The position numbers and the translations under genes are program-made. From NCBI GenBank assembly GCA_024516035.1, contig CM044964.1, positions 11,449,914 to 11,513,913 of the forward strand: DNA of 64,000 bases, in the 5' to 3' direction. This stretch comes from Bactericera cockerelli (lineage: Eukaryota > Arthropoda > Insecta > Hemiptera > Triozidae). The notes below the pieces were generated by a model. The model made no database searches. It saw nothing but the letters and a program-made list of their open reading frames with translations, and had not been told where the DNA came from. This document shows positions 10,294-27,767 of the stretch, one piece after another. Within the stretch, counting starts at the first letter, position 1; the number at the start of each line of letters is the position of its first letter.

Positions 10294-10403
10294 CTATTTG
10301 CCCTTCTTAGCCTTGATCTTCCTCATGTAGAACTCGAGCTCCTTGCCTTCTAGGATGTAGCCGTCTACGCGACCACACTGTCCGGGTCTGCTCGCCACGC
10401 AAG
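10294..10403 (-). CDS. RpS8: RPS8 exon 6
   Basis: Encodes [28 protein letters not shown] and IKAKKGK-stop. Acceptor TTGCAG at 10404-10409 (minus). The stop codon is the reverse complement of 10294-10296. Confidence 0.95.
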
Positions 10404-13400
10404 CTGCAACACATCACAACACAGCAATTAGTATAATTATCTTCACTTAACTATAGTATTTTTTTTTTATTATATAATATCACTTTATTGTAGTATACTT
10501 TATTAGAAAACATTATTCAGGACATCGTCATTTGGATGACAACCCAAAACGCTTGCAGCATTGCCTCGTTGAACTGCAAGGCTTATCTGTTGCAGCAAAT
10601 AATTTCCCGTTCTTGGGTCTCCAAAAGTAATTATACGGAGGGAATACATTAGACTGGTTTTAAAAAATCAATATCGGAATTTTTACAACGCTCAGGCAGA
10701 AATGAGTTCGGCTTTTGCAGAAATTGAGATAGACAAAATTTCAAGGCAATCAGAGTACGTTAACAGGACCCGCTCTGGCCTCAAAGTTTGGAAATTTGCC
10801 AAATTTTCGAGGTTGAGCTGACATTTTCGGCCGTAACTCGAGAACGAAAAATCATACGAGCTTTAAAGATACATCAAATGAAAGACCATTTTGTTGGCTT
10901 TACTTTTTTGTAGAATACTAGTTCCCGAAATCTTAATGGTTACTGACTAAATTAAGAATATGTAGTCGAAAACGGGCCAGGTACCCAAAGTAGAGCATCT
11001 AAGGCAAGATAGGATAATGGGTGAAAATACTTATGATTTATAAAACTTATACATATAAATGTTAGAAGATTAGTTTTGAATGCTTTTTTGACACATTATG
11101 AAGCTATAAATACCCGTTTTTACCTACTTGATAGTTCCTGACAGGTTGAGGCATGGCCAGAAAAACAAAATAATAATACACACATATTACGTCAAAGTTA
11201 TTCTAATTTTTTTTTTATTGTAGAACTACAAATATCTAAAATTAAAAGTACAAATAGGTACCATTCCGTAAAAAAAATACAAATTAAGCAGTAAAACTTA
11301 ACTTAGTTAGTTGGGAGAGTGGTAGAGAGGGAACTTTTTGAAGAATCAGGATAGAGTCTCCTACATTTACTCGCAACTTGTTGGACAAACTGTTTCTGAC
11401 ATTCCTCTCTAGTTAGTAAGTCGCTGAAGTCACTCATCAACTTAACGCCTCTCTTGGCTCTATCGGTTACAACTTTAAGGGATTGTACAATTTTAAGTCC
11501 TTTCTGATACTGAGGCTCACCATGCCAAATTTAGAGGTCTCCCCTCAAAAAGTCAGTTTTTATGACAAATCGACTAAAGAAAAGAAAAGTTCCGTGAGTA
11601 ATGAACTCTTTAAGGCCCCCTCTCACATAAGCTGGTATGTCTTTTATTCGTACTGTAATGTAGACATTTTTTGTCCCCTCTGTATCATCAGATGAACTGA
11701 AAAGCTTTGCAGCCATTCTTGACTTTTCATCATGTGACAAAGTTGGACCGAAAAAATCCCAAGCCAACAATTTCGGCTTTCAAGTACCACAGGTGATAGA
11801 CAACTTTATTTAGTGCTTTCTCTGAACTATGTGTTTTGATACGACAGCATCAAACACAGGTGTAGAGTAAAAGGACCCTGCACATTATTTGAAAAAATGT
11901 TAGAGCGGGACTTGCTCTCCTTAGCATATCGGCACAACATTCTAGAAGTTGTCTTGAGAAGCGTCTTTGACTGTAAAATGGGTAGTAGAACTGAACCTCA
12001 TCCAGATAATTTATATGAGAGCGCGATTAGCTCAGTGGTTAAGCACCGCTTGCCATGCGGAAGGTCCTGGGTTTGATCCTCCGTGCCGACAAAAATTTGT
12101 ATTCTTAATTTGGTTACAATTGTTTGTAAGGGATACCTTCCGGTGCGCTCGTGATAACCTAGCACCTAAATGGGAAGTATTGTGTCACATCTCGCCCATC
12201 AGAGGGGAGGCATACTACGGGATGGGCAGGTTACAACACAGACCACAAGCGTCTACAGTACCTCCTGTTTCTTGGCTATAACGTGTGGTACTTGAATGCC
12301 GAAACTGTTGGCTTGGGATTTTTCGATCCAATTTTGTCACATGATGAAAAGTCTGGAATGGCTGAAGAACTTTTCAGTTCTTCTGATGATACAGAGGGGA
12401 CAAAAAATGTCAACATTACAGTACGAGTAAAAGACATACCAGCTTATGTGAGAGGGGGCCTTAAAGAGTTCATTACTCACGAAACATTTCTTTTCTTCAG
12501 TCGATTTGTCATAAAAACTGACTTTTTGAGGGTAGACCCCTAAATTTGGCATGGTGAGCCTCAGTATCAGAAAGGACATAAAGTTGTACAATCCCTTAAA
12601 GTTGTAAACGACACAGCCAAGAGAGGCGTTAAGTTGAGGAGTGACTTCAGCGACTTACTAACTAGAGAGGAATGTCAGAAACAGTTTGTCCCTCAAGTTG
12701 TGAGTAAATGTAGGAGACTCTATCCTGATTCTTCAAAAAGTTCCCTCTCTACCACTCTCCCAACTAACTAAGTTAGGTTTTACTGCTTAATTTATATTTT
12801 TTTGACGAAATGTTACCTATTTGTACTTTTAATTTTAGATATTTGTAGTTCTACAATAAAAAAATGAGAATAACTTTGACGTAATATGTTTGTATTATTA
12901 TTTTGTTTTTCTGGCCATGCCTTAACCTGTTAGGAACTATCATGTGGGTAAAAACGGGTATTTATAGCTTCATAATGTGTCAAAAAATCATTCAAAACAA
13001 ATCTTATAACATTTTCTAGTATAAGTTTTATAAATCATAAGTATTTTCACCCATTATCCTATCATGCCTTAGATGCTCTACTTTGGGTACCTGGCCCGTT
13101 TTCGACTACATATTCTTAATTTAGTCAGTAACCATTAAGATTTCGGGAACTAGTATTATACAACAAAGTAAAGCCAACAAAATAGTCTTTCATTTGATAT
13201 ATCTTTAAAGCTCGTATGATTTTTCGTTCTCGAGTTACGGCCGAAAATGTCAGCTCAACCTCGAAAATTTGGCAAATTTCCAAACTTTGAGGCCAGAGCG
13301 GGTCCTGTTAACGTACTCTGGTTGCCTTGAAATTTTGTCTATCTCAATTTCTGCAAAAGCCGAACTCATTTCTGCCTGAGCGTTGTAAAAATTCTGACAT

Positions 13401-16400
13401 TTTTTTCTTACCTCTATGAGATAAAACCAGTCTAGGAATACATATAAATAAAGTAAACTCATAGATAAAGACAACACTACCGTGAAGGATGATATAATTC
13501 ATGCAAAATAAAGAAATGTTAAGTTTATTGAAAATGAATAAAATTAGTGAGGCTCGAGAGTGAGTCTATCCTTCACTACATTATGGAAAAGTGACATACG
13601 AAGGTAGATCACATTTTGAAATATCGTATCTCTTTTAGGATCAATAATTTATTTCATTATTTTCAGGAATTCTTCATGACTCGTTTGTAAAAAATGTGCC
13701 AGAAATATGAGAACTCGATTCTTGCACAATCATCAGCACAAGAACCATCTTATGGTTCCCGATTTTCTGACAACTGCTATAGCACTTAAACTGGCCACAC
13801 AACTGATCAACAGCTACATTGCATGGAATTCCGAGGTGCATTCATAAAATCTCTCACTCATACATCTCCCGATGCATTATATTCTTTCACAAGTCTGAAA
13901 ATCACGGTGATTTGAAAACACCAACTACATACTTCTAAGTCATAATGCATACATAAAACTGTTTTATTTTTCTTTTAGTTTTCATATATAAAACTGTTTT
14001 ATTTTTCTTTTAGTTTTCATACTTAAAACTGTTTTATTTTTCTTTAGTTTTATGAACCAAAGAGAACGATGAGATTACTCAAAACTCCTTTTTTTCGAAG
14101 ACAACCAACATAAGCAAATTTAATGTTCTTTGATATATGCTGGGGTAATCAATTTGTGTCAGCAACGAGGAATTCCACAGTTTTCTATCAACAAAGTAGA
14201 AGACGAGCTTCTTTTCTGCGAATTCTGTTGTGTCATCATGCACAAATTGAGAGCCTGAATTTAACTAGTGCCGATTATATCTAATGGAAATCACAAATTA
14301 GGTTTCTATGCTTGTCTCAGAGCGCTGTGGGAAATACAACAGTGTTGTGTCACATCACATAGCTTCAGCAAATGAAATGAACCAAGGTAACACATGTCAT
14401 CATTGGCAAGCAGAATATTAAACAGATAACATGTAAGATGAGAAAGAGAGAAAAAAGAAAATGTATAGATAAGTCACAGTATGTACAATGTCTAAGAGCT
14501 TCCATATAAGCCTGATTTAGGGCAGAATTATAAAACAGTATTATGCTAAGTCAGACTGTCCCTCAAGTCAGGCTATAGTGCGCTGTGATTGGTTGAAACT
14601 CAGGCATGAGGGAGGATTCTGACTAATCTTAAATTAGGGCGGAATTAATAGACGTTTCTGTAACCTGTGGCACTAAGTCACGGATTGCGTACTGTGTAAG
14701 ATAGGGAAAACCGACGCTTAGCAATGACTTGAGTTATAGATTTGTATATTAATTTCGCCCTTAATCTCGTTTTACATTTCAGCCATACGAGTAGGTAATG
14801 TGTTTAAGAACGTCAGGAAATTTTAGTTCTGAGTGACAATTCAGAATCCTTTTGGCTTGAATATAAAATATAATCATTAGCTTCATTTGACGAGTTTTAC
14901 TTGATCATCATTATTGTCGACTCAGAATTTCATATAAAATCTCAAGATAAGCTAAAGTCTAGAGAGGTTCCGGCGCATCTTAAATTTAAAATCCTCTGCC
15001 ATGATTCGGCCATTAGTCTCACATGATTAGGACGGTCACAGGTAAGCTATTCCCAGAGCCTTGCTGGCGTATCTGTACTGTGCATAGGACTTTTTCCTTC
15101 TTCATTGAGCCACTTTATAACACTGTATCACAACAGGTCGTCTATGCTAGTTACCCTTTCTCAAATAGTGTTTTAAATTTGTAGTTCATTGAGGTACTGA
15201 AATAAAGAATCAACGCTCTCGACTGAGTCTGAGAGCGTAGGAGAAACAGGGAGAAAATCACGTATTTGTGAGTGTAAAGGACAGGCGAGGATGTGTCGAA
15301 CAGTGAGATTCTCGCCGCAACCACACAAAGGCTGAGGTGTTTGCTTGCCTGAATATTGCTGTGGGTCAGTCTTGTAGGTCCGATTCTTATTCATGTAGCA
15401 ATTGTTGCATGGGGCTTTTCATACATTCAGTAGAAGGGAATTGAAAAGATTCAGTAGAAGGAAATCTATTTATTTTTTGAAACTCTATTAGTAATAGGTA
15501 TACAAACAAATAATGGTAAAAATTAAAATACAAAATAATATAAACAAGAAAAAATAAACAAAATATATACATATGTCCTAACTAAAGGGCGGGGTAATTG
15601 CCATAGGCAATCTCTTCCACCCAACCCTTAATTGAATAAAAATCTGTGAGTCAGTCTTGTATGACCGATCCCCTCATTCGTGTCGCATGAGGCTTTTCAT
15701 GCATTCAGAGGAAGGGAATCACCCTACAGATTGACGAGGCATGGCTGCAAAAGCTCACCTAGGATACGACCGGTCTGGAATTGCTCCTCGATGGGCTGCT
15801 CCACCTTGGCGTGCTTCTGTCTGGACTTGTACTTCTTCACCACCTTCTTGGATCTCTTCTTGTTCAGGACGGCCTCTTCAGCCTCCGTCTGAAAACAAAC
15901 AAGAGAAACATATTAATAAATAATCGAGCCAAGATAAAGGAAGTTGTCTACATAGGAGTCACCGTCTACAAATTTATGTATTTTTTAAATCTATATTTTT
16001 GTAATTGTGGTATAGGTACATGATATATCAAGAAAAAAATAAAATAACAAACTAACACGTTAATAAATTGAGACCAAGATAAATACAGTAGGCTAAATTT
16101 GTCATTTCATTTAAAAAAAAAAAAAAAAAATGTTAACTTCAGATATTTTGAGACTTAATTTACTGTTATTGGAGAATGCATGGCAACACAAATAAAACTA
16201 GTGCTTAAAAGAAAGGAAGCTTTTTTCGTTATTTTATTTTTTCTGAGACGTCATTCATATCACAATGGCAAGACCATTCGACTACTACAATAATGTTAAT
16301 CGCCATCAGCAAAGGCTCATTTAGAGTGATCTAAGATTCTGCAAAGGGGGAAAACCTCGAGTCCTGATATTCTCTTCCGATAGGTTCGAGGAATGGAATT

Positions 16401-19400
16401 GAATTGGATACTTTTATTTGTGCAAGGAACAAGAAAATATAAAAATACAACTTCTGAGGAAGGAAGAGGACCGAACATGGGACTATTTGTAGCTTAGGGA
16501 GGGCGGGCACTCAGAGTAACTATGAAACACACTCAGCGGTTCTCAACTAGGCGTGGAAGTCAAAAACTGACAAGAGCCACATGAGGCGTCGAGATCATGG
16601 GCTTGGTGTTATCATCATCGTGCCGGGGGGGGGATAATAGGTGGGAGAGTTTGAACTTCGAGAAATACTAATAGTTTAGATATTATACACGATAATATTT
16701 TAAAAGTCGAATGGTCACACTAGTTGGCTCTTTCGGTTGGAGTGGAATAATTTTAAATAGCGGACGCCGCATATAGGAATTTCTTTTAGAGAAGATCCCC
16801 AGAAATTAGTACCGTTTCGGTTGTGGGTTCAATTTTCTTACAGGACAAATTATTATTGATCTATGCTTGTCTCAGAGCGCTGTGGGAAATACAACAGTGT
16901 TGTGTCACATCACATAGCTTCAGCAAATGAAATGAACCAAGGTAACACATGTCATCATTGGCAAGCATATGTTATCAAAATCTTTTTTTAAACTGCACTA
17001 TTGAGTATATAATGTTTATTAAAATTAAAAATGGTATTTTTTGGGGTTTTGTATATTTTGATTTTATTTTCATACCATCATAGGCTATGTTGTTGGAAAT
17101 AACTCTGTACCAAGTTGTTCAGAACGTTAGAGGTGAAATAGTAGGTTGAGTTATTCATCAATGTAACGCAACTGACGACTCAGTGAAGAATCGACAATCA
17201 CGTCAGATAGGGTGGCTCATCATTACAACTTGGTGGTTGAAATATGTCCAATAGTTAAACTTGCTTTTATTTCAACTTGATCTTCCACTGTCTTATTTTT
17301 CAAGAAATTCCAGCTCAAATTTCAAAATGGAGTGTGAAAAGCAATTGATTGTGCTACTACAAAACGCTAGGATTCGTGATTAATTTGTATTTTCTCAGTA
17401 GAAACGGGTTGTCACCATTTCATGTGTAAGAAGACCGTCGTTCTAGCATCATCATTGAAAAATCAAGTTTACTACTATATTAGTAACAACGATACATAAA
17501 TAAGTATAAAGATGGGTTATTTTGAGACAAATCAGAATCCTTTTGGCTTGAATATAAAATAAAATCATTCTCATTTCATTTGACGAGTTTTACTTGATCA
17601 TCATTTTCGTCTCAGGATTTACAATATTAATCTGTAACTTAGGATTTAAATGATATGTACTAACAAAATTACAAAATTCGATATTCAAGTCTTGAGTTAG
17701 TAAAGAAAATCTATTTTTTGCAAGGAAATGTGTTTCAACTAATCATTATTACCACGGCACCCGTCGCCTGGCCTATCAGGGCCGAATTATAAGAGGATTA
17801 CAACAATTGTATAAAAAAAAAAAACAAGCCAGACCAGACCGTCACTCAAGTCGACTATGCTGCGCTGTGATTGGTTGAAACTCCGACTTGAGGGTCGGTC
17901 GAGCTTCCTTCAGTTTAAATTTGTGTCAGCAACGAGGAATTCCACAGTTTTCTATCAACAAAGTAGAAGACGAGCTTCTTTTCTGCGAATTCTGTTGTGT
18001 CATCATGCACAAAGAGTGAACCTCTGAATTTAACTAGTATCACAATGCAAGTATGGAAAAATATGAAACTATGTAGGTTAAAACAATGCAATTTGCATCA
18101 GGTGTCAATTTGAAAATAAGGCAAATTAACAAATGGTTGCAGGTTGAGTTTTCTATGCTTGTCTCAGAGCGCTGTGGGAAATACAACAGTGTTGTGTCAC
18201 ATCACATAGCTTCAGCAAATGAAATGAACCAAGGTAACACGTGTCATCATTGGCAAGCACAAATTTACAAGTTCTTTCGAAAGAAAATATAGGTTCCTTT
18301 TAATGTTATTTTTTTAATCAAGTTTACTGACGAAATAAATACTAAATGACCACTCGTGAATTTTCATTTTATTTTTACACTTCAATAGGATGAAACCCCT
18401 ATGAACAGTAGGTAGTTGAAATCTCTCAGTAGAACGGGTTGTCACCATTTCATGTGTAAGAAGACCGTCGTTCTAGCATCATCATTGAAATTGGAACTCC
18501 TTGATAAATATTATGTTATAGAAGAGAAAAGTGTACGAAAATAAAACCATGGAGAACTACCCGTGTGAATTAAATGGGCATCACATTGAAAGGAAGACAG
18601 TTCAGAATCCTTTTGGCTTGAATATAAAATATAATCATTCTTGTTTCATTTGACGAGTTTTGCTTAGTCATCATTAATGTCTTCACAAGCATGGCGATAG
18701 ATTCTGTTAAGAGGAGAATCGATTATTATTACCCACACTGCATTGCTCACTATCTAATAATAACACTCTTTAGTGTAATGCTCAAAGCATTTTCTACCAC
18801 CTTACCCTCAGACCAAAATATGTGGTCACAAACCCAAATTAAAGAGGAAAAATTTATGCGCTGAGATTCGAACCAACGGATCCCTTACGTGTTAACCACT
18901 TGACTACCATTATCTAGATCTAGAATCTAGATCAGTCTCTAGATCTAGCACCTATTTAGATCTAGAATCTAAGAGCAATTCCTGAAAAAACAATAGAGTA
19001 GATATTCATCTTAAGTTCTGGTTGACAATTCAGAATCCTTTTGGCTTGAATATAAAATATAATCATTAGCTTCATTTGACGAGTTTTACTTCATCATCAT
19101 TATTGTCAACTTGGAATTTGATACAAATAAAATATTAAACTTCAGGGGTAATAGAAAGTTTCAATTAACAAGTATTTTCTCAGTAGAACGGGTTGTCACC
19201 ATTTCATGTGTAAGAAGACCGTCGTTCTAGCATCATCATTGAAAAACGCGACACTTTTTTGTGGTCAAATATCTCAAAATGCGACCTGGCAACCTCCTAT
19301 AGGTCTTACTGTAAATAAAATAAGTCCCATATCATAAAGATATAAAATATTCAATTTTCTATAAAGGATAATAATTATAACAATAAAATTGTAATATAAT

Positions 19401-22400
19401 GTATCGATCGAGACAAATCAGAATCCTTTTGGCTTGAATAAAATTATAATCATTGTCATTTCATTAGACGAGTTTTACTTGATCATCACTTTTGTCTAGG
19501 GATTTGTCACCAGAAGTGAAAATTAACCGTGGAACATATAGTTTTGATACCAATGACATTGAAAACCACAACGATAAAATGAAGGAAAAATATATCTATT
19601 TGGGTTCTAACTGGTGCAAGCTACTTTCCAGGATTTACAAACAACTTTTATTATTCAACTTTACAATACAGGGAAACAGTAGAAAAAAAAACCTTTCACT
19701 TTTTTCGTTATTGCAAATTTATTTCACGAAATTACGAGACTTGGGAATGAAATCTCTCAGTAGAACGGGTTGTCACCATTTCATGTGTAAGAAGACCGTC
19801 GTTCTAGCATCATCATTGAAATTGCAACATCTCTTTAAATTAGTTATAAGTAGATCACTATAAATTAATACGCGCTGATCATTTATCCTCAAGTAAAAAT
19901 CTCGAGCTTCTATGGGTGACAATTCAGAATCCTTTTGGCTTGAATATAGAATATAATCATTAGCTTCATTTGACGAGTTTTACTTAATCATCATTATTGC
20001 ACCCTGCTAATTATAATTATGATAATAATAATTATCTGTCAAAGCTAGCAAATTTTTGTTTTTGTGACCGATTGAAACTTTTCAATGTATGTATGTCTTT
20101 TATACAACAAAAAAAAAATCATTGGGAAAACTAAAAGGAAAGAAAAGTTTATTTGTTCAAGCGATATTAAGCTTTGGTTGTTTCATTCAGCAACGAGGAA
20201 TTCCACAGTTTTGTATCAACACGATGAAATGTCTGCGAAATACTGTTTTGTCATCATAGAAACAGGGCAATATCTACTTAATCAATCAAAGAAAACGATT
20301 TCTGAGAGGGTTTTGAAAATTAGGTTAATAAAAAAATTACAAAGAAATGCTTTCCTGGGGCTGAGGGCTACTTGTGTTGGGACGTGTGTTAGTTATTAAA
20401 AAAAAGTAGTGTTTCATTCAGCAACGAGAAATTCCACAGTTTTGTATCAACACGATAAAAAGTCTGCAAAATACTGTTTTGTCATCATAAAAACACTCAC
20501 ATTTTTTTTTGAAACACCAGGACATGTGCTATTTATTTTATAGTTATCAAATTTGTGTTAATCACAATAACTCTCATACTAGTTTAAAAAAAAAAAAAAA
20601 TCTAAACTCGGGTCTTGAACAGTCGACCTCCAGATATCAAGTCCGCCGCCTTATCGATTGAAACTGAGGTGGGGGGTATATTTTATTTTATTAATATGTG
20701 TTTCATTCAGCAACGAGGAATTCCACAGTTTTGTATCAACACGATAAAATGTCTGCGAAATACTGTTTTGTCATCATAGAAAACACAACTATTTCAATTG
20801 AAAATTTAAAGTATGTACTCACCTCAAGAGTTAAATTACAGTTTTTTATTACATAAAAGTGATAAATTTACAATGATAAAAAATATTTTAAAATTAGACA
20901 GACTTGTGAAAGTAGAGAAATTTCACTTGCACAGATAATATATTTTTAAACAATAATCACTCATATTGTTTGTTTAAATTTTAAAAAGTAAAAAATAATA
21001 TTAGATTCCGTGCTAAGATTTAACCGGGAAGTATAAAAGCACCTTTCTCACTCAGGAGATTTAAGTCAACTAATTAATAAAAAAACTAACACATATTTTC
21101 CAATCCATAAAATCCATTACGCTATAAATAAACCTCTATAACTTTCTAGGAATACAACAAATGGCAATACGGGTTAATAATAGGTAGGTGGCATCTAACT
21201 CACCTGGTTTTACCCTGAGACAAAAGGCTGACCTTTGTCTCCATTACATCAGCCCCAAAGAGGGTCAGACCATTGTCATCAGCCCCAAAAAGGGTCAACC
21301 TATAATTACTTAACCTTCATATTATTACCTATTCTTGTTTTCCTATCGTCTACCTACATTCATTTCACGAGAACTTCCAAATCATGCCTCCTTATAAATT
21401 CTAAGAAAAAACAATATAATTATCTTAAAAACTATAAATAGCGACGGGTCATACAAGATTTTGGTATTACATATTGGAAAAAAAAGTTTACACAAACTCG
21501 CTTTACTAAATCTTTGCTGAACTTGGGACTCGAACCACTGACCTGCGGTTACGAGAAAGACACATTTTCTTGGCTGACATGCAACTTGAACAGTACCTAT
21601 TTTTTGTACAATTTTCATTTCTCAGGTCTAAACAGAATCAGAAATGTACCAGAAACATGAGAACTCGATTCTGGCACTCTGAGGATGCACTAGAATCATC
21701 AAGGTTCTCAATTTCCTGGTAAAATTAATATGGCACTTAAACTGGCCACACAAATTAGTAACAGGTACATTTGCATGGAATTCCGAGGTGCCTTCTCTTC
21801 AAGACTTTTCTTTTATGAACACACAAAAAAACCCATATGAAATCAAATCAGATGCAAAAAAAACAAGTATGTTTAAAAACATTTTCCCTAGCACAATAAA
21901 AATAATAATATAAAAATAGAAATCAAAAATAATAAAATAATGAAGACTGAATAAGTATCATTAAGGTGCGTCCACATTATGTCGATCGACAGTGTTAATA
22001 CTCCAAAGCCTCGATCGACACGTCCACACTATGTCGATTGACACAAAATAGTGTGGACGAACCTTTAGAAACGAAGATGGTTTAGCACGCCAGTTGAGAA
22101 ATAATAATAAAAAGTAAACCACAAAAACTGAGCACATTAAATTTATCAGGTTGCTCAAGTTTGCTATCTTCCTCTATTTAATGAGGAAAGTTGAGGTAGT
22201 ACATGACAAAAGCATTAACACCACCAGTTTGCCTGTCTTGCGTCATTAAGGGCTGAATTATAGAACAGGATTAGATTAAATCCAAGCGGACTCTATCCCT
22301 TACTCTGGCTAAGTTTATAATAATAATAATATCACTCTTAAGTGGAAGGTATCCACCAGGCGAGGTTAATGCTCAAAGCATTTTCTAACACCTAACTCTC

Positions 22401-25400
22401 AGAAACTTATTCATATGGGGTCACAAACTGAAATTAATGAGGAAAAATTCATGCACTGGGTTCGATTGTTGTGATGGGTTGAAACTCTGCTTGAGGGCGC
22501 GTGTCTCGCTTAGCCTAACTTAAATCCCGTTTCATCATGTGAGCCTTAATGAGGATGTTGACTTAGCTTAACTTAAATCCTGTTTCATCATGTGAGCCTT
22601 AAAGAGGATGTTGACTTGGCATAACTTAAATCCTGTTTCATAATGTGGGCCTTAATGAGGATGTTGACTTAGCTTAACTTAAATCCTGTTTCATATTGTG
22701 AGCCCTAATGAGGATGTTGCATGAAGGGTAGTCTACACGAGCTCGCAAAGACTTACCAGTTTGCCCGTCTTCCTGCGTCCGATGGGGATGGCGTAGTACG
22801 TCTCGTACCACTGGCGGAATGGAGTGGCGTCAATCACCACGATGGCGTTCTTCACCAGGGTCTTGGTTCGCACCAGCTCGTTGTTGCTGGCGTTGTACAC
22901 CACATCGATGATACGCGTCTTCCTGGTGCAGCCTGGTCAACAGCCAATCAAATTTTTTTTTTTTTAATATAATTTTAAATTTGTTTTTTTTTGTAACAAA
23001 AATGGGTTAAATCCGGAAGTTTGTGTAAATAATAATAAAAAAAATACCATGCGTGTTGAGAACCACACCAGTTAAACCAATCAAAACAATTACCAAACTT
23101 TGTACCTTGATCGATGAGGCAGCGGACTTGTAACCTGGAGGTCGGTGTTTCAAGTCCCGTCATCAGAGTAGACGTAGTATACCGAGTTAACACAAGGTTT
23201 CAGTTTTCGAACCTCTGACCTCTGAATTTCACTGAAAAGAAGTTTTGGTCCAACCTAGGCTGGGTGAAGTTCACGTGGGTAGCTGGTAATATTCCCAGCA
23301 AATGGAAGGTTAAAACCCCCCCTCTCAATAAACCAAATCAGGATGTTTTCAACAAATAAAATCAACTGGTCACAATGGATCTTATTAGGTTTCAGTGTTA
23401 ATAAGTATATGAAGATTTCACTGAAACCCTGCAAGCAAGTCAGATTTCTTTTTGCATTGGTAGGCAAAGCTATTCATTACAAAGCCAATTAGATTAGATA
23501 ATAATAACATGTACTTAGAACAGCAAACAGTCAGAACGTTAGAGGTGAAATAGTTTTGAGCATTCATCAACCAAAAAGCATTAAACCTCACAGTAAAGCC
23601 CCTGAGAGCTCTACTGTTTTGGTTCAATACTCATCAGATTTACAGTTTAGTCATCATTCTGTTAGCAAGTTAGCATCCAAGTAGAGTTTTCAAAATTAAG
23701 TTGGGGCAATGGACTTTCAACTGTTGAGATTTTATCATCTCAAAACAAAACGAAAAGAATAGAAGGAAGCCAGTCCACCAACAAAAAGAATGGTGAAAAC
23801 CAAAGAAGCCAAAAACTAAATTATTATATCCTTTTAGGCAAAAAGACTGACCAAGAAAAAAGACATAACAGTTTTCAATATCATTGAATGGGTGATTAGA
23901 AGGACAGGGAATGTCAAAGTCATGGGTATCCTTTTAGGATTATTATATCCTTTTAGGCAAAAAGACTGACTAAGATAAAAGACCTAACAGTTTTCAATAT
24001 CATTGAATGGGTGATTAGAAGGACAGGGAATGTAAAACATGGGTAAACCCCGTTAATTTACTTTGACTGCAAAATAATAATTGACTGCATAATAGAAGAA
24101 ATGCACAGGTTCTTCCACTCTCTTAATGCTGAAAATAAATAAATTAAAGAATAACACTAGGGGTATTTTCCCTCGTCCCGATTATAGAATATTCCATATT
24201 ATTCTACAATTTTTGTGTGATTTTAATGGTTACCTTCTCACCCATTCAGTCAGAACCAACATTTATTTCAATATCACCTATTCTTCAGACTACCATTATG
24301 TTTTACTAACAGAAATTGAGCATTCTCAGAGCATCAAAATGTAAACACTGACACTTCATTATGTGGAGAAGGTATGCAATATTAGATTTTCATCATTGAA
24401 AAGTCTCTTTCTGAATAATAAGTGGACTTCAGCATCAGAGATAAATGCAAAAAGATTATCATTGCTAGATATAATTACATAGTAAAGAGCATTTTCAGAG
24501 CATAAATGTAAACACAGACACTTCATAATGTGGAGAAGGTATGCAATGTATGTTCTTTCATCATTAAATAGCTCTAGCTTTTGACAACAAAAAAAAAACC
24601 AAGAGAATGTACATAAAAAATGTGTCAACTTCTAATTTTCTATGGACTGGTTACATTAGTCAAACGTAACCTACCTACCTTATGATATTTTGTAAAAAAT
24701 AAAATTAATACATACTCATCTGAATAGAAGAGGGCATTTTCAGAGCATAAATGTAAACACAGACACTTCATAATGTGGAGAAGGTATGCTATTTGTGTTC
24801 TTTCATCATTAAATGCCTAAGAGTAAGAAATTTAATCAATAGCACTTATCAGACCAGACAGTATAAGTTTAAGCAAAATGGTGTAAATTGATGTTACTCT
24901 AATTCAATTAAGGAATTGTAGAAATTAGAGATCAAGGAGACTCACATTATTTTCAAAAATTACCACAAATTTCTTCTTAAAAACAGACTCAAAAAAAGGC
25001 TTGGGTTTAGAAAATCAGCATTACCTTATTTTTTTTCCAATAAGGGAAAACATTAATATAATAACATAAAAAGACACAAAAATTTCAACACATGTGCAGA
25101 AACAAATTTTTGGCTATTAACATCAAATTAATGTAACACTAATTTAGACTGCTTAAACACAAGTACAGAAATAATTTCAAATCTATTTATGGTGGTTGAG
25201 ATGTGGCTGCTGGGCCCTGAATTATGTGAATTTAACATCATGTGATCAATATCAAGAAATCACAGAGCTTCAAATTGAACACATGAGCTTGAACCTAGTG
25301 GAAGGTCTTGAACTGACCATTAAAGAATCATCTCTATATATGAAACAGAAAAGGACTACCTACCTACCTATGTTTGTTTGTTTGTCCGAGTAAATTAGCC

Positions 25401-27767
25401 AAAACGATAAGAGATAACAAAAATGTCTCAGAATTGACCCCCCCAAAACCATTATCGCTTGTCCAGAAAAATTATAAAAATTTCAAAAGGCATTGCTGTC
25501 CAGCAGTACGGCCATGCCTTAGTAAATTTGAAATTTAGTCCCTTGCAAAGCACGGCAAACGGCTAGTGTCTTAATAACTCAATGCTGGTAAATAATTTAA
25601 TTTCTTCAGTTGAATACTCCCTTGGCAGAGGAATTATGATAAGGTAAAATTACTGAAAACCCTACAATTTAGAATTGGTGGGCAAAAGGAATAAAAGAAA
25701 GTGAGCAGCTGCTCTAACCATGTTTACTAAACACAGGTAAGTTCAGCACAGAGGTGAAATATACAAAACCAAAAACTTATGCTTCTTAAATTCACTGAGG
25801 TTTCTAGTTATTGTATTTATAAACCAAAGTTGCGGATCAAGTTTGAGGGACTAAGGAGTCACCTTGTTAGTAAAAAAAAAGTTGTATAAGAAACAAGCTT
25901 TCTTTTCACATGGTTCTGGAAGTCCTTTTCAATAGTTACACCCCTTGTTTGGAGATTCAAGATACATGACATTTCTAACATATCAGACAGTTGTCTACCT
26001 AAAAAACTGTCTCAGTAGCAAGATTTTCTTAAAATACTAATTAATATATTAACACAATAAATATTATTAAAACTTACATTCAGATCCCCATGAGAAATTG
26101 CCAGTGTCAATGCGGAGAGCTCTGTACTTCTTGTTACCTCCTCGGGTACGTACAGTGTGTATTCTCTTAGGTCCAAGCTGCAAAGGTAAAGAATAATGTT
26201 AATTATTTTCAGCTCTTAATTGTAATGAGAAAAACAGGACTCAAGTAAAATTCATGAATAGACTCATAGAAAGGTTGATATAAGGTAAACACAAAACCAC
26301 TAGTAAAAGATAACCTAGCAACTATTAAGAAGGACAAAAAGTTTATTTTAACACTTAAGGCTGGAAATATTTTAAGAAAAGCCAGAAAGGACCTGCTTAC
26401 AATTGAGGTTACAACTAACAGCTATAGTGCACTACAACAAGACCTGAGGGAAAGGATTATTGTACATTTAATCCTGTTTTATAATTTGGACCTTGGACAG
26501 TGAGGAGATAGTCAAGTAATAGTATGATAGTAATGCAGCAAGATTTACATTGAACACACATGATCAAATTCAAACTGGTGGCTCACTTCATAACAAAGCA
26601 TCAGTAAACTTTTCTCATGGAATTGAATAGGGTTAAGTGCATGGTTAATAATGAGCAGATAAAACCATTCAACTTTCTAAACAATCACATGGCTAATGAC
26701 AATGCTGAATCAGACTGTTAGTAACCATGCACTAAGTCCCAAGTAATTAGTTGAGATTCATTACTTGGTCCCTAAGATTATTATTAACTATCATAAATAA
26801 TAAATGCATTGTGACCCATGCAAGTTGTCCTGGGGTTGTCTAATATAAAATTTGAATGAACTTACCTGGGGTTTGCTGCTGGACGTCCTAACTCAAACTT
26901 CCTCTTCTTTCTGATGGGCTTTCTTTTGCCTCCTGTGGCACGTCTTTTATGCCAATGATCCCGGAGATACCTGGAATTAGAAACACATAATGGTTTACTG
27001 AAATTTCAACACAGATATTTTCTGTGCAATATGTGAATGGTAGAGAAATGAGATCTCAACTATATAAATATCACCAAAATGTTTTGGTTTTTTTTCCCTC
27101 TGACTCAACTTGACATAGATATAATATTCTACTAAGGCTCATGAAGGCAAATTATGATTTAAGATTTGATAAAATCAACCATGGATCTATAAACCTAGGT
27201 AGAGATGCCTGATAAGTTGAACAACTGCTTTCAATATATATGTGTTTATTATTTTGATCAACTTCCTTTGGTTACTTTTTCAGCATTACATGTCTTGCTC
27301 TGTTAAGTTAGGAGCATACTAATGTATCAGAACACTCGGGACAAGATGAATCTTTAAATTCTTTTCTTTAATGCTTTAGTCGTTTTAAATTTTACATTAA
27401 CCCTCCAACTCAAGATACTCAATTACTATCCATATGAGCAGACCTCAAACAGAAACTTCAATTTCTAAAGACCGAGAACCCATGGAAAGATGATTCTGAT
27501 TTCGAGGATTGATGGAATTTCAATTTCTTTAACGTAGTTAGAACCTACCTAGTTTAGTTCCTAACAATTGGATGGATTAGGAAAACCTACCGCCAAGAGG
27601 TCCTTAAGGAACAGCTCCATAGCTTGACACTAGTCAAAAATAGGTGGTTTATATTCTCGAATTGGTACAAGGATGGCTTTGGCTTAAATTAACTTTACAT
27701 GGTGAAACTCAACAAAGCTTATTTAGCCAGATGAAAATGGATAAAAAGGAGAGAAAAACTTACCCAT
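10294..27767 (-). CDS. RpS8: 40S ribosomal protein S8 (eS8), six exons, snoRNA host gene
   Basis: eS8 is a structural protein of the small ribosomal subunit. Minus-strand exons: 27767-27764 (ATGG), 26970-26866, 26177-26078, 22932-22757, 15888-15759, 10403-10294. Recognised segments in order: [137 protein letters not shown] and [16 protein letters not shown]. Exons 3 to 6 join in frame. Exon 2 lacks two single bases against the family: one C in the ATC-TCC-CGG-GAT region and one A in the last AAG. Total length is 625 nt instead of 627. Read literally the frame breaks, so this is either consensus error or a damaged exon. A pyrimidine stretch TTCTTCT (27797-27803, minus) could be part of a TOP start. 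Introns 3-5 hold 25 snoRNA copies. Confidence 0.93.
11288..11793 (-). pseudogene. Decayed ORF of unknown repeat family, left arm
   Basis: Minus strand reads [49 protein letters not shown], then a stop at the position used by the right arm, then [11 protein letters not shown] and further [28 protein letters not shown]. Arthropod genomes contain uncharacterised repeat proteins with a similar [22 protein letters not shown] tail, as I recall. Interrupted, non-functional. Confidence 0.5.
12016..12280 (+). mobile_element. tRNA-headed SINE in the spacer of the inverted repeat
   Basis: Head GCGCGATTAGCTCAGTGGTT (A box) and CTGGGTTTGATCCTCCGTGC (B box), then CGACAAAAATTTGTATTCTT and a body to about 12280. 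A minus-strand relative lies at 52795-52965 (same head with GAGCGCACAAATAGCTCACT). No closed acceptor stem, so not a tRNA gene. Confidence 0.7.
12283..12769 (+). pseudogene. Decayed ORF of unknown repeat family, right arm
   Basis: 86 open codons ([46 protein letters not shown]), an in-frame TAA at 12541, then an open continuation [54 protein letters not shown] and [18 protein letters not shown] to TAA at 12769-12771. The same stop exists in the left arm, so it predates the inverted duplication. Confidence 0.55.
13692..13841 (-). ncRNA. Box H/ACA snoRNA, copy 1
   Basis: Two hairpins on the minus strand. Hairpin 1 is closed by GCAC (5') and GTGC, followed by H box ATAGCA (ANANNA). Hairpin 2 is closed by CAGAAA and TTTCTG, followed by GC, ACA and three nucleotides. 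A second copy at 21642-21792 keeps the CCTCGGAATTCCATGCAA and AATCGAGTTCTCAT segments and GTGTGGCCAGTTTAAGTGC while the rest has diverged. Host intron: RPS8 intron 5. Pseudouridylation target not assigned. Confidence 0.8.
13946..14052. repeat. 37-bp tandem repeat
   Basis: Three copies of AAACTGTTTTATTTTTCTTT followed by TAGTTTTCATA with small differences. Confidence 0.85.
14151..14248 (-). ncRNA. Box C/D snoRNA, family E, copy 1 (18S guide)
   Basis: Minus strand: stem AATTTGTG/CACAAATT, C box ATGATGA, C'-like GTTGATA, D box CTGA. The guide before D is GGAATTCCTCGTTG, complementary to 18S AACGAGGAAUUCC. The D+5 rule picks the G of AACG. By counting from the CACACCGCCC segment I equate it with yeast G1572, target of snR57. 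RPS8 intron 5. Confidence 0.88.
14308..14412 (-). ncRNA. Box C/D snoRNA, family A, copy 1
   Basis: Minus strand: stem TGCTTG/CAAGCA, C box AATGATGA, internal GCTGA (D'), D box CTGA after TTCCCACAGCGCT. Nearly identical to copies at 16862 and 18156. Target unknown to me. RPS8 intron 5, next to a family E copy as at 17919/18156. Confidence 0.85.
14519..14640. mobile_element. AGGGCNGAATTATAAAACAG MITE, copy 1
   Basis: Starts AGGGCAGAATTATAAAACAG and has the shared core AGTGCGCTGTGATTGGTTGA and AACTC. Its relatives at 17778, 22250, 28203 and 61911 end in AATCCTGTTTCA. Confidence 0.65.
14637..14763. mobile_element. GGGCGGAATTAATAGAC MITE, copy 6, with TTA duplication
   Basis: Complete copy with ends GGGCGGAATTAATAGACG and TATTAATTTCGCCC, flanked by TTA on both sides. 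It supports a 3-bp TNA target duplication. Confidence 0.8.
14831..14923 (-). ncRNA. Box C/D snoRNA, family D, copy 1
   Basis: Minus strand: terminal stem GAGT-GACAAT/ATTGTC-GACTC, C box ATGATGA, C'-like AATGATTA, D box CTGA preceded by AAGCCAAAAGGATT. One of six copies whose stems differ but pair. Target unknown to me. RPS8 intron 5. Confidence 0.87.
15173..15394 (-). pseudogene. Non-LTR retrotransposon C-terminal fragment
   Basis: 73-codon minus-strand ORF with [16 protein letters not shown], the C-x-C-x(5-6)-TV-x-H-x-L-x-x-CP pattern found after the RT/RNase H part of Jockey-like and related LINEs. The reverse transcriptase is absent and the ORF is short, so this is a relic. Confidence 0.55.
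15759..15888 (-). CDS. RpS8: RPS8 exon 5
   Basis: Encodes [32 protein letters not shown] and [11 protein letters not shown]. Acceptor TTTTCAG, donor CTAG/GTGAGC. In frame with exons 4 and 6. Confidence 0.95.
16500..16680. repeat. Dispersed repeat shared with 62965-63140
   Basis: From ACTCAGAGTAACTATGAAAC through CAGCGGTTCTCAACTAGGCG to GAGTTTGAACTTCGAGAAAT. The same sequence is found inverted at 62965-63140. The AGCGGTTCTCAAC start resembles hAT ends. Confidence 0.75.
16862..16968 (-). ncRNA. Box C/D snoRNA, family A, copy 2
   Basis: Minus strand stem TATGCTTG/CAAGCATA, C box AATGATGA, D' GCTGA, D box CTGA. RPS8 intron 4. Same guide segments as copy 1. Confidence 0.87.
17110..17233 (-). ncRNA. 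Box C/D snoRNA, family B, copy 1 (18S guide)
   Basis: Minus strand: strong stem CCAAGTTGT/ACAACTTGG, C box AATGATGA, C' TTGATGA, D box CTGA. The guide ATTTCACCTCTAACGTT is complementary to the conserved GUUAGAGGUGAAAU segment of 18S; D+5 falls on the first U of GUU. Shares only this guide with the copy at 23526. RPS8 intron 4. Confidence 0.87.
17388..17463 (-). ncRNA. Box C/D snoRNA, family C, copy 1
   Basis: Minus strand stem ATTTTTC/GAAAAT-like, C box ATGATGA, D box CTGA preceded by ACAACCCGTTTCTA (one extra base compared with the other copies). RPS8 intron 4; lies next to a family D copy as in three other places. Confidence 0.8.
17524..17613 (-). ncRNA. Box C/D snoRNA, family D, copy 2
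   Basis: Terminal stem GAGAC/GTCTC, C box ATGATGA, D box CTGA after AAGCCAAAAGGATT. RPS8 intron 4. Confidence 0.86.
17778..17915. mobile_element. AGGGCNGAATTATAAAACAG MITE, copy 2
   Basis: AGGGCCGAATTATAAGAGGA start and the CTGCGCTGTGATTGGTTGAA core; contains an A-run of 13. Confidence 0.55.
17919..18013 (-). ncRNA. Box C/D snoRNA, family E, copy 2 (18S guide)
   Basis: Stem TTTGTG/CACAAA, C box ATGATGA, D box CTGA with the guide GGAATTCCTCGTTG. Nearly identical to 14151-14248. RPS8 intron 4. Confidence 0.88.
18156..18259 (-). ncRNA. Box C/D snoRNA, family A, copy 3
   Basis: Stem TGCTTG/CAAGCA, C box ATGATGA, D box CTGA after CCCACAGCGCT. RPS8 intron 4. Confidence 0.86.
18419..18494 (-). 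ncRNA. Box C/D snoRNA, family C, copy 2
   Basis: Stem AATTTC/GAGATT, C box ATGATGA, D box CTGA preceded by ACAACCCGTTCTA. RPS8 intron 4. Confidence 0.85.
18593..18684 (-). ncRNA. Box C/D snoRNA, family D, copy 3
   Basis: Stem GAAGACA/TGTCTTC, different from the other copies yet fully paired. C box ATGATGA, D box CTGA. RPS8 intron 4. Confidence 0.87.
18900..18975. repeat. AGATCTAGA-rich short inverted repeats
   Basis: Repeated AGATCTAGAATCTAGATC strings, self-complementary, between two snoRNA copies. Confidence 0.6.
19021..19110 (-). ncRNA. Box C/D snoRNA, family D, copy 4
   Basis: Stem GTTGACAAT/ATTGTCAAC (9 bp), C box ATGATGA, D box CTGA after AAGCCAAAAGGATT. RPS8 intron 4. Confidence 0.88.
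19174..19246 (-). ncRNA. Box C/D snoRNA, family C, copy 3
   Basis: Stem TTTTTC/GAAAAT-like, C box ATGATGA, D box CTGA after ACAACCCGTTCTA. RPS8 intron 4. Confidence 0.85.
19411..19497 (-). ncRNA. Box C/D snoRNA, family D, copy 5
   Basis: Stem AGACAAA/TTTGTCT, C box GTGATGA, D box CTGA. A 3-nt difference lies in the A/T-rich middle. RPS8 intron 4. Confidence 0.86.
19750..19825 (-). ncRNA. Box C/D snoRNA, family C, copy 4
   Basis: Stem AATTTC/GAGATT, C box ATGATGA, D box CTGA after ACAACCCGTTCTA. RPS8 intron 4. Confidence 0.85.
19914..20004 (-). ncRNA. Box C/D snoRNA, family D, copy 6
   Basis: Stem GGGTG-CAAT/ATTG-CACCC with one bulged base, C box ATGATGA, D box CTGA after AAGCCAAAAGGATT. 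RPS8 intron 4. Confidence 0.86.
20180..20263 (-). ncRNA. Box C/D snoRNA, family E-prime, copy 1 (18S guide)
   Basis: Stem GTTTC/GAAAC, C box ATGATGA, D box CTGA with guide GGAATTCCTCGTTG as in family E, but a shorter and diverged 5' half (CAAAACAGTATTTCGCAGAC). RPS8 intron 4. Confidence 0.86.
20410..20496 (-). ncRNA. Box C/D snoRNA, family E-prime, copy 2 (18S guide)
   Basis: Stem GTGTTT/AAACAC, C box ATGATGA, D box CTGA. The guide has one change (GGAATTTCTCGTTG), which leaves a G-U pair with 18S. RPS8 intron 4. Confidence 0.84.
20605..20680 (-). mobile_element. tRNA-derived SINE head
   Basis: Minus strand CGATAAGGCGGCGGACTTGA, ATCTGGAGGTCGACTGTTCA; family of CAGTAGCTTGATCGATAAGG heads also at 21520, 23110, 41950, 53480, 61025, 63790 and 63975. 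Confidence 0.55.
20698..20786 (-). ncRNA. Box C/D snoRNA, family E-prime, copy 3 (18S guide)
   Basis: Stem GTGTTT/AAACAC, C box ATGATGA, D box CTGA, intact guide GGAATTCCTCGTTG. First snoRNA but one to be transcribed in RPS8 intron 4, after the H/ACA copy. Confidence 0.86.
21642..21792 (-). ncRNA. Box H/ACA snoRNA, copy 2
   Basis: Hairpin 1 closed by GGCAC and GTGCC, H box ATATTA, hairpin 2 closed by CCAGGAAA and GTTTCTGG, then T, ACA and three nucleotides. Both pocket regions match copy 1 while the apical loops differ. RPS8 intron 4. Confidence 0.82.
22250..22560. mobile_element. AGGGCNGAATTATAAAACAG MITE, copy 3, with nested insertion
   Basis: AGGGCTGAATTATAGAACAG start, GGTTGAAACTCTGCTTGAGG core, and an inserted repeat of the AATGCTCAAAGCATTTTCTA family at about 22318-22465. 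Confidence 0.6.
22505..22720. repeat. 53-bp tandem repeat made from a MITE end
   Basis: Four copies of TAGCTTAACTTAAATCCTGT, TTCATCATGTGAGCCTTAAT and GAGGATGTTGACT. The unit contains the MITE right end (AATCCTGTTTCA..GTGAGCC), so it arose by amplifying that end. Confidence 0.8.
22757..22932 (-). CDS. RpS8: RPS8 exon 4
   Basis: Encodes [38 protein letters not shown] and [20 protein letters not shown]. Acceptor CCAG/GC, donor CTG/GTAAGT. Confidence 0.95.
23105..23410. mobile_element. tRNA-like head and SINE body fragment
   Basis: Plus-strand head TGATCGATGAGGCAGCGGAC, TTGTAACCTGGAGGTCGGTG at 23108-23165, then a body fragment CAACCTAGGCTGGGTGAAG, GTGGGTAGCTGGTAATATTC, CCAGCAAATGGAAGG and AATCAACTGGTCACAATGG. 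Confidence 0.6.
23526..23664 (-). ncRNA. Box C/D snoRNA, family B, copy 2 (18S guide)
   Basis: Stem AACAG/CTGTT, C box ATGATGA, C'-like TTGATGA, D box CTGA after ATTTCACCTCTAACGTT. About 137 nt, long for the class. The body shares nothing with copy 1 beyond the boxes and the D guide. RPS8 intron 3. Confidence 0.78.
23825..24047. repeat. Two-copy tandem repeat of about 110 bp
   Basis: ATCCTTTTAGGCAAAAAGAC through AACAGTTTTCAATATCATTG to TAGAAGGACAGGGAATGT occurs twice. A hairpin TTTTCAATATCATTGAA is conserved. I could not place C/D or H/ACA boxes convincingly. Confidence 0.8.
24321..24402 (-). ncRNA. Box C/D snoRNA, family F, copy 1
   Basis: C box ATGATGA, D box CTGA after GTTTACATTTTGATGCT, internal CCTTCTCCACATAATGAAGT. 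Short stem CTTTTC/GAGAATG-like. RPS8 intron 3. Target unknown. Confidence 0.78.
24487..24574 (-). ncRNA. Box C/D snoRNA, family F, copy 2
   Basis: Stem GAGC-ATTT/AAAT-GCTC, C box ATGATGA, D box CTGA after GTTTACATTTATGCT. RPS8 intron 3. Confidence 0.84.
24733..24816 (-). ncRNA. Box C/D snoRNA, family F, copy 3
   Basis: Stem GGCATTT/AAATGCC, C box ATGATGA, D box CTGA. Same guide segments as copies 1 and 2, changed but paired stem. RPS8 intron 3. Confidence 0.85.
24830..26070. other. RPS8 intron 3, 5' part
   Basis: AT-rich. 25195-25330 is a diverged relative of the palindromic element at 60152-60292 (ATCATGTGATCAAT, AATCACAGAGCTTCAAATTG). No further snoRNA seen. Confidence 0.5.
26078..26177 (-). 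CDS. RpS8: RPS8 exon 3
   Basis: Encodes [33 protein letters not shown] and the first base of the following Cys codon. Acceptor TTTGCAG, donor GAAT/GTAAGT. Confidence 0.95.
26178..26865. other. RPS8 intron 2
   Basis: 688 bp of AT-rich sequence. No snoRNA boxes in a convincing arrangement. Confidence 0.5.
26866..26970 (-). CDS. RpS8: RPS8 exon 2, two single-base gaps
   Basis: Encodes [20 protein letters not shown] and [11 protein letters not shown], but GTATCTCCGGGAT should be one C longer to follow ATGG in frame, and AACCCCAG before the donor should be one A longer. The splice sites (CCAG acceptor, GTAAGT donor) are intact. As written, translation from the ATG ends after 28 codons. Confidence 0.9.
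27764..27767 (-). CDS. RpS8: RPS8 exon 1 (ATGG) and 5' end
   Basis: ATG at 27765-27767 followed by G and donor GTAAGTT. The ATGG/GT split after the start codon is the same as in vertebrate RPS8. The 5' UTR and promoter should lie just right of it, within about 27768-27900. Confidence 0.8.

What the first reader, a model, noticed from the sequence alone, without database searches (positions are those of the whole stretch)
13692..24816. Twenty-five snoRNA copies packed into three RPS8 introns
Seen: 23 C/D copies (families A x3, B x2, C x4, D x6, E x5, F x3) and two H/ACA copies, all on the host strand; 17 sit in one intron. Known: vertebrate RPS8 also hosts C/D snoRNAs, normally one per intron because they are released from debranched introns. 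Inference: such density needs endonucleolytic processing of a polycistronic intron, or unannotated non-coding exons between the copies.
Basis: partly seen in the sequence, partly recalled or inferred. Interest (0 to 1): 0.88.

Follow-up and report, generated by a model that had tools for sequence, protein, structure and literature searches.

The report
Polycistronic snoRNA array in insect RPS8
Three introns of a ribosomal-protein gene in a psyllid-like insect carry 26 apparent small nucleolar RNA genes, 18 of them in one intron, so tightly packed that the usual "one snoRNA per intron" animal pathway could not release them all.

Summary
The scan gives 26 candidate C boxes on the host strand (24 accepted), 0 on the other strand, mean 0.31 in resampled sequence. 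Family D stems covary; guides stay nearly identical while flanks are at background; E, C, F and G1 guides fit recalled human rRNA; A, B and D are not significant there. The organism is psyllid-like. Repeated order suggests local block duplication. Last copies lie 589, 617 and 3,288 nt from 3' splice sites; 6 of 23 spacers are under 100 nt. Exon-like signals are not above chance (2 of 23 spacers, 2.8 expected). So release probably needs endonucleolytic cuts, or the intron survives as a multi-snoRNP, sno-lncRNA-like RNA. Intronic clusters are known in algae, plants and (H/ACA) flies; this is an extreme animal variant. No RNA data: expression is inferred.

The parts
27765..27800 (-). RPS8 exon 1, 3' part with the start codon; 5' end not mapped
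   Evidence: sequence
26866..26970 (-). RPS8 exon 2 (frame one base off relative to exon 1)
26078..26177 (-). RPS8 exon 3
22933..26077 (-). RPS8 intron 3 (3145 nt), 4 snoRNAs
22757..22932 (-). RPS8 exon 4
   Evidence: Pfam PF01201 E 1.6e-12
15889..22756 (-). RPS8 intron 4 (6868 nt), 18 snoRNAs with G1
15759..15888 (-). RPS8 exon 5
10404..15758 (-). RPS8 intron 5 (5355 nt), 4 snoRNAs
10294..10403 (-). RPS8 exon 6, coding part with stop
24731..24818 (-). C/D snoRNA F1
   Evidence: weak Rfam RF00353 29.8 bits, gathering 45
24486..24573 (-). C/D snoRNA F2
24317..24405 (-). C/D snoRNA F3 (3-bp terminal stem)
23522..23666 (-). C/D snoRNA B1
   Evidence: guide identical to B2
21642..21791 (-). H/ACA snoRNA H2 (H box ATATTA, ACA near 3' end)
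   Evidence: fold z -5.09; SNORA15 E 0.07, 21.1 bits, gathering 47
20698..20786 (-). C/D snoRNA E1
   Evidence: 13-bp match to 18S
20409..20497 (-). C/D snoRNA E2 (one C-to-T in the guide)
20178..20266 (-). C/D snoRNA E3
19915..20003 (-). C/D snoRNA D1
19748..19825 (-). C/D snoRNA C1
19409..19498 (-). C/D snoRNA D2
19171..19248 (-). C/D snoRNA C2
19021..19109 (-). C/D snoRNA D3
   Evidence: best Rfam hit of the array, RF00536 E 0.11
18593..18683 (-). C/D snoRNA D4
18417..18494 (-). C/D snoRNA C3
18155..18259 (-). C/D snoRNA A1
17917..18015 (-). C/D snoRNA E4
17523..17613 (-). C/D snoRNA D5
17386..17464 (-). C/D snoRNA C4 (one-base insertion before the D box)
   Evidence: weak SNORD35 hit, 20.2 bits, E 2.4
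17110..17232 (-). C/D snoRNA B2
   Evidence: 10-bp stem
16863..16967 (-). C/D snoRNA A2
16506..16624 (-).
   Evidence: best Rfam snoR442 E 0.011, 21.1 bits, gathering 50
14832..14920 (-). C/D snoRNA D6
14308..14412 (-). C/D snoRNA A3
   Evidence: no Rfam match at E of 1 or less
14150..14248 (-). C/D snoRNA E5
13692..13839 (-). H/ACA snoRNA H1 (H box ATAGCA, ACA near 3' end)
   Evidence: fold z -1.81, 8 of 200 shuffles as good; structure shared with H2

Best explanation
An RPS8 gene of a psyllid-like insect has turned introns 3, 4 and 5 into polycistronic snoRNA precursors. From sequence: 24 C/D and 2 H/ACA snoRNA genes on the host strand; one (G1) appears to be an old RPS8 resident, the rest belong to seven multi-copy families, most simply made by local block and tandem duplication and kept under constraint on boxes, guides and stems. 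Inferred: they are transcribed with RPS8 pre-mRNA; core snoRNPs assemble on each copy; one or more endonucleases cut the unprotected spacers; exonucleases trim to the terminal stems and release single snoRNPs that modify rRNA. Repetition of one guide most likely sets dosage. The nuclease is unknown; no hairpin that would mark an Rnt1-like site was found in the spacers.
For: C/D density 26 against 0.31 expected, 0 on the other strand. Family D stem: 88.9% of 54 cells paired, 0 of 500 shuffles reach its covariation score, slid controls 39-46% paired. D guides 0.95-1.00 identical in A-E (F 0.87; its matching guide is the D' one) while flanks are at background; B1 and B2 share guide, C' and D box and little else. 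rRNA fit: E 13 bp, C and F 10 bp (0, 0, 1 of 40 shuffles as good), G1 11 bp at the D box (1 of 200); D shares 11 guide nt plus D box with fly Me28S-Cm3227. Six spacers of 58-98 nt and last copies 589, 617 and 3288 nt from the 3' splice site leave no room for one-snoRNA-per-intron release throughout. Cryptic exons not above chance.
Against: No expression data: none of the 26 is shown to be made. None reaches an Rfam gathering score. Spacers show no cleavage hairpin (fold z -1.78 to 0.89 in 22 spacers), so the endonuclease rests on geometry alone. For D, the number of pairs changed on both sides (4) is reached by 46 of 500 shuffles; family C stem covariation is not significant (72 of 500). Copies other than F3 were picked by a scan that itself required a 4-bp stem. 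A strong acceptor (16454, 12.9 bits) sits 52 nt downstream of G1, so G1 could leave by a conventional route.
Confidence: 0.62

Rival explanations
1. Sno-lncRNA-like outcome: with no endonuclease, exonucleases stop at the outermost snoRNPs and intron 4 survives as a 4-5 kb RNA bearing up to 18 snoRNPs, as the main product or beside single snoRNAs.
For: Two snoRNAs in one intron are the stated prerequisite for a human sno-lncRNA; 48 of 400 human snoRNAs form pairs in single introns and 7 sno-lncRNAs were detected in H9 cells (passages of PMC4234469). Eighteen genes share intron 4; no cleavage hairpins in spacers.
Confidence: 0.15
2. Unannotated non-coding exons or recursive splice sites cut the introns so that each piece holds one snoRNA.
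For: In intron 4, donors of 9 bits or more at 21543, 21204, 20823, 18806 and acceptors at 21543, 21215, 20131, 18982, 16454, 16339; opposite strand 2 donors and 4 acceptors. G1 lies 52 nt upstream of the 16454 acceptor.
Against: Exon-like pairs in 2 of 23 spacers (H2-E1, D3-D4), 2.8 expected. The D3-D4 pair overlaps a repeat found at five other places in the window. Six spacers are 58-98 nt. Pairs within single spacers could split the 16 C/D copies E1-A2 into at most two groups of 8; exons spanning a snoRNA were not scanned.
Confidence: 0.08
3. Most copies are dead duplicates; only one per family is expressed.
For: C4 has a one-base insertion next to the D box, E2 a guide substitution, F3 a 3-bp stem; silent snoRNA copies are common (general knowledge).
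Against: Near-identical guides while flanks are at background and compensatory stem changes in D.
Confidence: 0.1
4. Copies spread by retroposition of snoRNA transcripts rather than by DNA block duplication (concerns origin, not processing).
For: Identity stops near mature ends (A body 0.99, flanks 0.47-0.50). G1 has a second copy outside RPS8 (near 62655-63137, plus strand) whose similarity runs 5' into the intron but ends at the G1 3' stem.
Against: The 25 reader copies are on one strand in one gene and the seven families have no copy elsewhere in the window; D-C and A-E order is repeated; E4 and E5 share a 15-nt word 5' of the gene, longest of 253 flank pairs, next 10. No tail was seen by eye at the second G1 copy.
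Confidence: 0.15

Closest known systems
Vertebrate RPS8 snoRNA host gene (U38, U39/U55, U40/U46)
   Same: Same host gene, C/D snoRNAs in several introns (chicken, PMC2653536 table rows). G1's guide places the methyl group on the A of 28S AGUAACUAUG, which I recall as the snR63/U40/U46 site, so this guide-host link may be old
   Different: One snoRNA per intron there. The repeated families are not matched to its guides: no SNORD38, 39, 46 or 55 among 27 Rfam matches up to E 10; targets were not aligned position by position. No H/ACA entry for RPS8 in the passages seen
Intronic snoRNA gene clusters of Chlamydomonas, Ostreococcus and plants
   Same: Several snoRNAs in one intron, polycistronic precursor, often isoforms (PMC7671301 passages; Chen 2008 title only)
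   Different: Algae and plants; here an insect ribosomal-protein gene with 18 in one intron
Drosophila intronic H/ACA clusters and Uhg host genes
   Same: Insect, intronic, multi-copy (Huang 2004 title in reference lists; passages of PMC5932544, and PMC13228274)
   Different: Many fly clusters are described as spread over different introns of one host, and H/ACA flanking C/D as not common; the titled intronic clusters are H/ACA
Vertebrate sno-lncRNAs
   Same: Need two snoRNAs in one intron (PMC4234469 passages)
   Different: Two snoRNAs as end caps there; 18 here; product unknown
Rfam RF00536 snoMe28S-Cm3227
   Same: Family D has its 11 guide nt plus D box unchanged
   Different: 5 of 6 D copies matched at 26.7-33.3 bits, below the gathering score of 43; six copies here

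Membership tests
Box C/D snoRNA | C box RUGAUGA near the 5' end | tested here: met
Box C/D snoRNA | D box CUGA near the 3' end | tested here: met
   23 of 23 (F3 read one base off) and G1
Box C/D snoRNA | Terminal stem joining C and D boxes | tested here: met
   22 of 23 with 5 bp or more, random pairs 11%; F3 3 bp; G1 GGCAC/GTGCC; covariation in D, not significant in C
Box C/D snoRNA | Guide complementary to rRNA next to D or D' | tested here: inconclusive
   4 of 12 guides fit (E, C D', F D', G1 D), 8 do not, on recalled human rRNA; D supported by the fly Rfam family
Box C/D snoRNA | Fibrillarin association, stable 70-150 nt RNA | not testable with these tools
   no RNA or protein data
Box H/ACA snoRNA | Hairpin, H box ANANNA, hairpin, ACA 3 nt from the 3' end | tested here: met
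   both copies; boxes read by eye; SNORA15 E 0.07 below gathering
Box H/ACA snoRNA | Pseudouridylation pockets matching rRNA | not tested
   no target search made for H1 and H2
Exonucleolytic one-snoRNA-per-intron release | One snoRNA per intron, about 70-80 nt from the 3' splice site (distance recalled) | tested here: not met
   4, 18, 4 per intron; last copy 589, 617, 3288 nt from the predicted exon's 3' splice site
Intronic polycistronic snoRNA cluster | Several snoRNAs in one intron, same strand | tested here: met
Intronic polycistronic snoRNA cluster | Endonucleolytic separation | not testable with these tools
   inferred; no hairpin signal
Sno-lncRNA | Inter-snoRNA sequence retained in a stable RNA | not testable with these tools
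   needs RNA data
U40/U46 (SNORD46) orthologue, for G1 | Guide to the 28S site and host gene RPS8 | tested here: inconclusive
   11 bp at the D box, 1 of 200 shuffles as good, in RPS8; site identity recalled, 28S letters recalled, absent from the fetched contigs; no SNORD46 match at E of 1 or less

The most novel reading that the evidence does not exclude
Intron 4 is processed as one multi-snoRNP particle: an animal ribosomal-protein intron that first becomes a stable 4-5 kb RNA carrying up to 18 C/D and H/ACA snoRNPs, and is then cut by a dedicated spacer endonuclease (or not cut at all). Either way this would be an animal maturation route distinct from debranching plus exonucleases, with guide dosage set by copy number inside one RPS8 intron, grown around an old RPS8 resident (the U40/U46-like G1).
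Probability: 0.25. Interest if true: 0.8.

Novelty: new variant of a known kind. Interest (0 to 1): 0.6.

Why it matters
Most animal snoRNAs are thought to be released one per intron by exonucleases. An 18-gene intron makes the question of which animal endonuclease separates intronic snoRNAs directly testable, where stems and flanks let each copy's product be told apart. It also offers a natural case of guide-copy expansion tied to a ribosomal-protein gene, and a test of whether conserved bodies in diverged spacers are kept by selection or by gene conversion.

Tried and rejected
The motif lies in its middle; its repeat boundary, 5-bp GC stem and 28S fit show a C/D gene, so it is now G1. The statement that no vertebrate RPS8 guide is present was dropped.

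Rejected: 22538 (inside a 53-nt tandem repeat). A decayed B copy near 25742, suspected by eye, was not returned by the profile search. Cleavage hairpins in 22 spacers: none (A2-G1 not folded alone); inverted repeats in intron 4: the 25 longest of 28 shown are weak, AT-rich or distant. Pair counting for family E was not done because the stem register differs between E1-E3 and E4-E5. Target of family A: none found. The organism's own 18S/28S: not available; contaminant eukaryotic rRNA gave parts only; four further viral-contig scans found nothing. D' guides of C and F were cut at degenerate D' positions chosen after seeing the rRNA match; shuffles keep base composition only. The D-C order test left out H2 and G1 and was chosen after seeing the order. 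Literature: nine answered searches, listings capped at 8-20 papers (for instance 10 of 17, 12 of 354); no listed title concerns psyllid snoRNAs in RPS8. The library is open-licence only; Huang 2005 and Chen 2008 are not held.
Full report
HOST GENE. tblastn with recalled human RPS8 places coding exons on the minus strand: exon 2 26866-26970, exon 3 26078-26177, exon 4 22757-22932, exon 5 15759-15888, exon 6 10294-10403, with an ATGG-donor exon 1 end near 27765. Exon 4 matches Pfam Ribosomal_S8e. Introns 1-5 are 794, 688, 3145, 6868 and 5355 nt. The top relatives of the protein encoded upstream at 29287-30120 are from Cyamophila willieti (58% identity), Diaphorina citri (68%) and Cacopsylla melanoneura (80% over 49% of the query), so the window comes from a psyllid or close relative; the species was not determined.

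THE COPIES. In transcription order: intron 3 F1 F2 F3 B1; intron 4 H2 E1 E2 E3 D1 C1 D2 C2 D3 D4 C3 A1 E4 D5 C4 B2 A2 G1; intron 5 D6 A3 E5 H1. The scan gives 26 candidate C boxes on the host strand in 13692-24816, 0 on the other strand, mean 0.31 and maximum 2 in 200 first-order resamples. A profile search of the masked window with the seven families returned one chance-level hit (E 5.4). A relaxed scan of introns 1-5 with known copies masked added one minus-strand candidate (16618, now G1) and none on plus.

A 26TH GENE. G1 (16506-16624) has stem GGCAC/GTGCC, C box ATGATGA, D' and D boxes CTGA. Eleven nt directly upstream of the D box pair with AGTAACTATGA of recalled human 28S, 1 of 200 shuffles as good; the D' guide fits nothing (150 of 200). 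By the D+5 rule the target is the A of GUAAC, which I recall as yeast Am2256 (snR63) and vertebrate U40/U46; chicken RPS8 introns 2 and 3 host U40/U46, listed with snR63 and an 11-nt 3' guide to 28S A3249. Against: no SNORD46 Rfam match at E of 1 or less, and the fetched contaminant rRNA lacks the target word. A second copy lies on the plus strand near 62655-63137 (93.3% over 208 nt plus a 46-nt piece, with an insertion between); similarity stops at the 3' stem and it is the only plus-strand candidate of the window scan.

ARE THEY FUNCTIONAL. Family D terminal stem: 88.9% of 54 cells paired, 4 of 9 pairs changed on both sides (46 of 500 shuffles reach that count), covariation score 0.467 against 0.188 (0 of 500), slid versions 38.9-46.3% paired; the structure was drawn from these sequences. 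Family C: all 20 cells paired with one double change, but 72 of 500 shuffles do as well. Region identities: bodies 0.99, 0.61, 0.99, 0.91, 0.84, 0.89 for A-F; D guides 1.00, 1.00, 0.95, 1.00, 0.98, 0.87; flanking 40-mers 0.46-0.54, against 0.47 for random intron segments. B1 and B2 differ nearly everywhere except C box, C' box, guide and D box. H1 and H2 fold as hairpin-H box-hairpin-ACA (43 consensus pairs, one with a double change, two sequences only; z -1.81 and -5.09).

TARGETS. Twelve guides were tested in register. Fit: E 13 bp to 18S AACGAGGAATTCC one nt from the D box (0 of 40); C D' 10 bp to 28S AGACCGTCGT, recalled as the SNORD35 site (0 of 40; Rfam SNORD35 hits C4 weakly, E 2.4); F D' 10 bp to 28S GTGGAGAAGG (1 of 40); G1 (1 of 200). 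Not significant: A D 7, A D' 40, B1 D 12, B2 D' 25, C D 29, D D 6, F D 40, each of 40; G1 D' 150 of 200. B pairs over 12 bp with 18S TAGAGGTGAAAT but 5 nt from the D box on human rRNA. D shares 11 guide nt and the D box with the fly family snoMe28S-Cm3227 (5 of 6 copies, 26.7-33.3 bits, gathering 43). All rRNA was human from memory plus parts of contaminant contigs, so a miss is weak evidence.

ORIGIN. Masked-intron self-comparison (E up to 1e-3) finds, between different snoRNA spacers, one match: 61 nt at 85% in the D6-A3 and E4-D5 spacers; that element recurs at three other places in the window, so it is a dispersed repeat. Yet order is not random: all 4 C copies of intron 4 directly follow a D copy (P 0.0026, test chosen after the fact); D2 and D5 share a subtype and so do the C2 and C4 that follow them (by eye); A-E occurs twice, with E4 and E5 sharing a 15-nt upstream word, longest of 253 flank pairs. 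This points to old local block duplication with spacers eroded. Why A and C bodies stay almost identical, non-guide parts included, is open: constraint or gene conversion.

PROCESSING. The last copy of each array lies 589, 617 and 3288 nt from its 3' splice site, the first 1259, 962 and 838 nt from its 5' splice site; 23 spacers are 58-860 nt, 6 below 100 nt. From E1 to A2, 16 C/D copies occupy 3924 nt, 1462 of it snoRNA. Exonucleases working inwards from intron ends would stop at the outermost particles. Non-coding exons: 2 of 23 spacers hold an exon-like pair, 2.8 expected, 3 on the opposite strand. Single sites of 9 bits or more on the host strand of intron 4 number 4 donors and 6 acceptors, against 2 and 4 on the other strand; the 16454 acceptor lies 52 nt past G1, and 16338-15963 would make an exon, at a null frequency of 0.4. 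These could split the array at few points only. Spacer folding is ordinary (z -1.78 to 0.89, 22 spacers). So endonucleolytic separation is the most likely route, the enzyme unknown; the alternative is a multi-snoRNP sno-lncRNA-like product.

WHAT IS KNOWN (passages, no whole paper read). Chicken RPS8 hosts U38, U39/U55 and U40/U46 one per intron (PMC2653536); Ostreococcus has two intronic clusters among 12 polycistronic ones, and its authors cite Chlamydomonas for polycistronic clusters (PMC7671301); many fly snoRNA clusters lie in different introns of one host, and H/ACA flanking C/D is called not common (PMC5932544); [quoted passage not shown] human sno-lncRNAs need two snoRNAs in one intron (PMC4234469); the actors maturing co-hosted non-intronic snoRNAs in human are said to be largely unknown (PMC12508059). 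Capped listings for psyllid, hemipteran or aphid snoRNAs showed nothing on this locus. I know no animal ribosomal-protein intron with 18 snoRNAs, but that is recall, not proof of absence.

VERDICT. Observation confirmed and extended by one gene; first interpretation partly supported; new variant of a known kind.

Noticed in passing
window 62655-63137, plus strand: A second copy of the G1 snoRNA with upstream intron sequence, outside RPS8, interrupted by an insertion near 62701-62930; box C and D are intact. Whether it is expressed or a stray copy is unknown.
   Followed up: partly
window 10661-11803 and 12272-13410: A 1.14-kb inverted repeat (94.6% identical arms, about 470-nt loop) inside RPS8 intron 5, downstream of H1; in the pre-mRNA it would form a very long hairpin. 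The loop holds a tRNA-like stretch near 12019-12092 (by eye), so probably a transposon.
   Followed up: partly
window 26866-26970: Exon 2 matches RPS8 homologues only in a frame one base off from the ATGG exon 1 end; an assembly indel or another exon 1 junction could explain it.
   Followed up: partly
window 22509-22719: A 53-nt unit repeated four times inside intron 4 next to exon 4.
   Followed up: partly
window 23820-24045: A 109-nt tandem duplication (94.5%) in intron 3 between B1 and F3, unlike the C/D families; function unknown.
   Followed up: no
window 18776-18871: Dispersed repeat with tRNA-like letters (by eye) in the D3-D4 spacer, also near 8546, 22367, 32773, 35689 and 37135; overlaps the candidate cryptic exon 18807-18982.
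   Followed up: partly
window 18155-18259 (A1) and A2, A3: The D box and 3' stem of family A (TGAGACAAGCA) are complementary over 11 nt to 18S rRNA near its 5' end; not in guide register, so probably chance.
   Followed up: no
window 8123-8215: 5S rRNA-like gene (44.1 bits, gathering 38), a tRNA-Ser at 3519-3600 and a weaker tRNA match at 4727-4795 minus.
   Followed up: no
window 29287-30120: 277-aa ORF upstream of RPS8 with relatives in several insect orders and no Pfam family.
   Followed up: no
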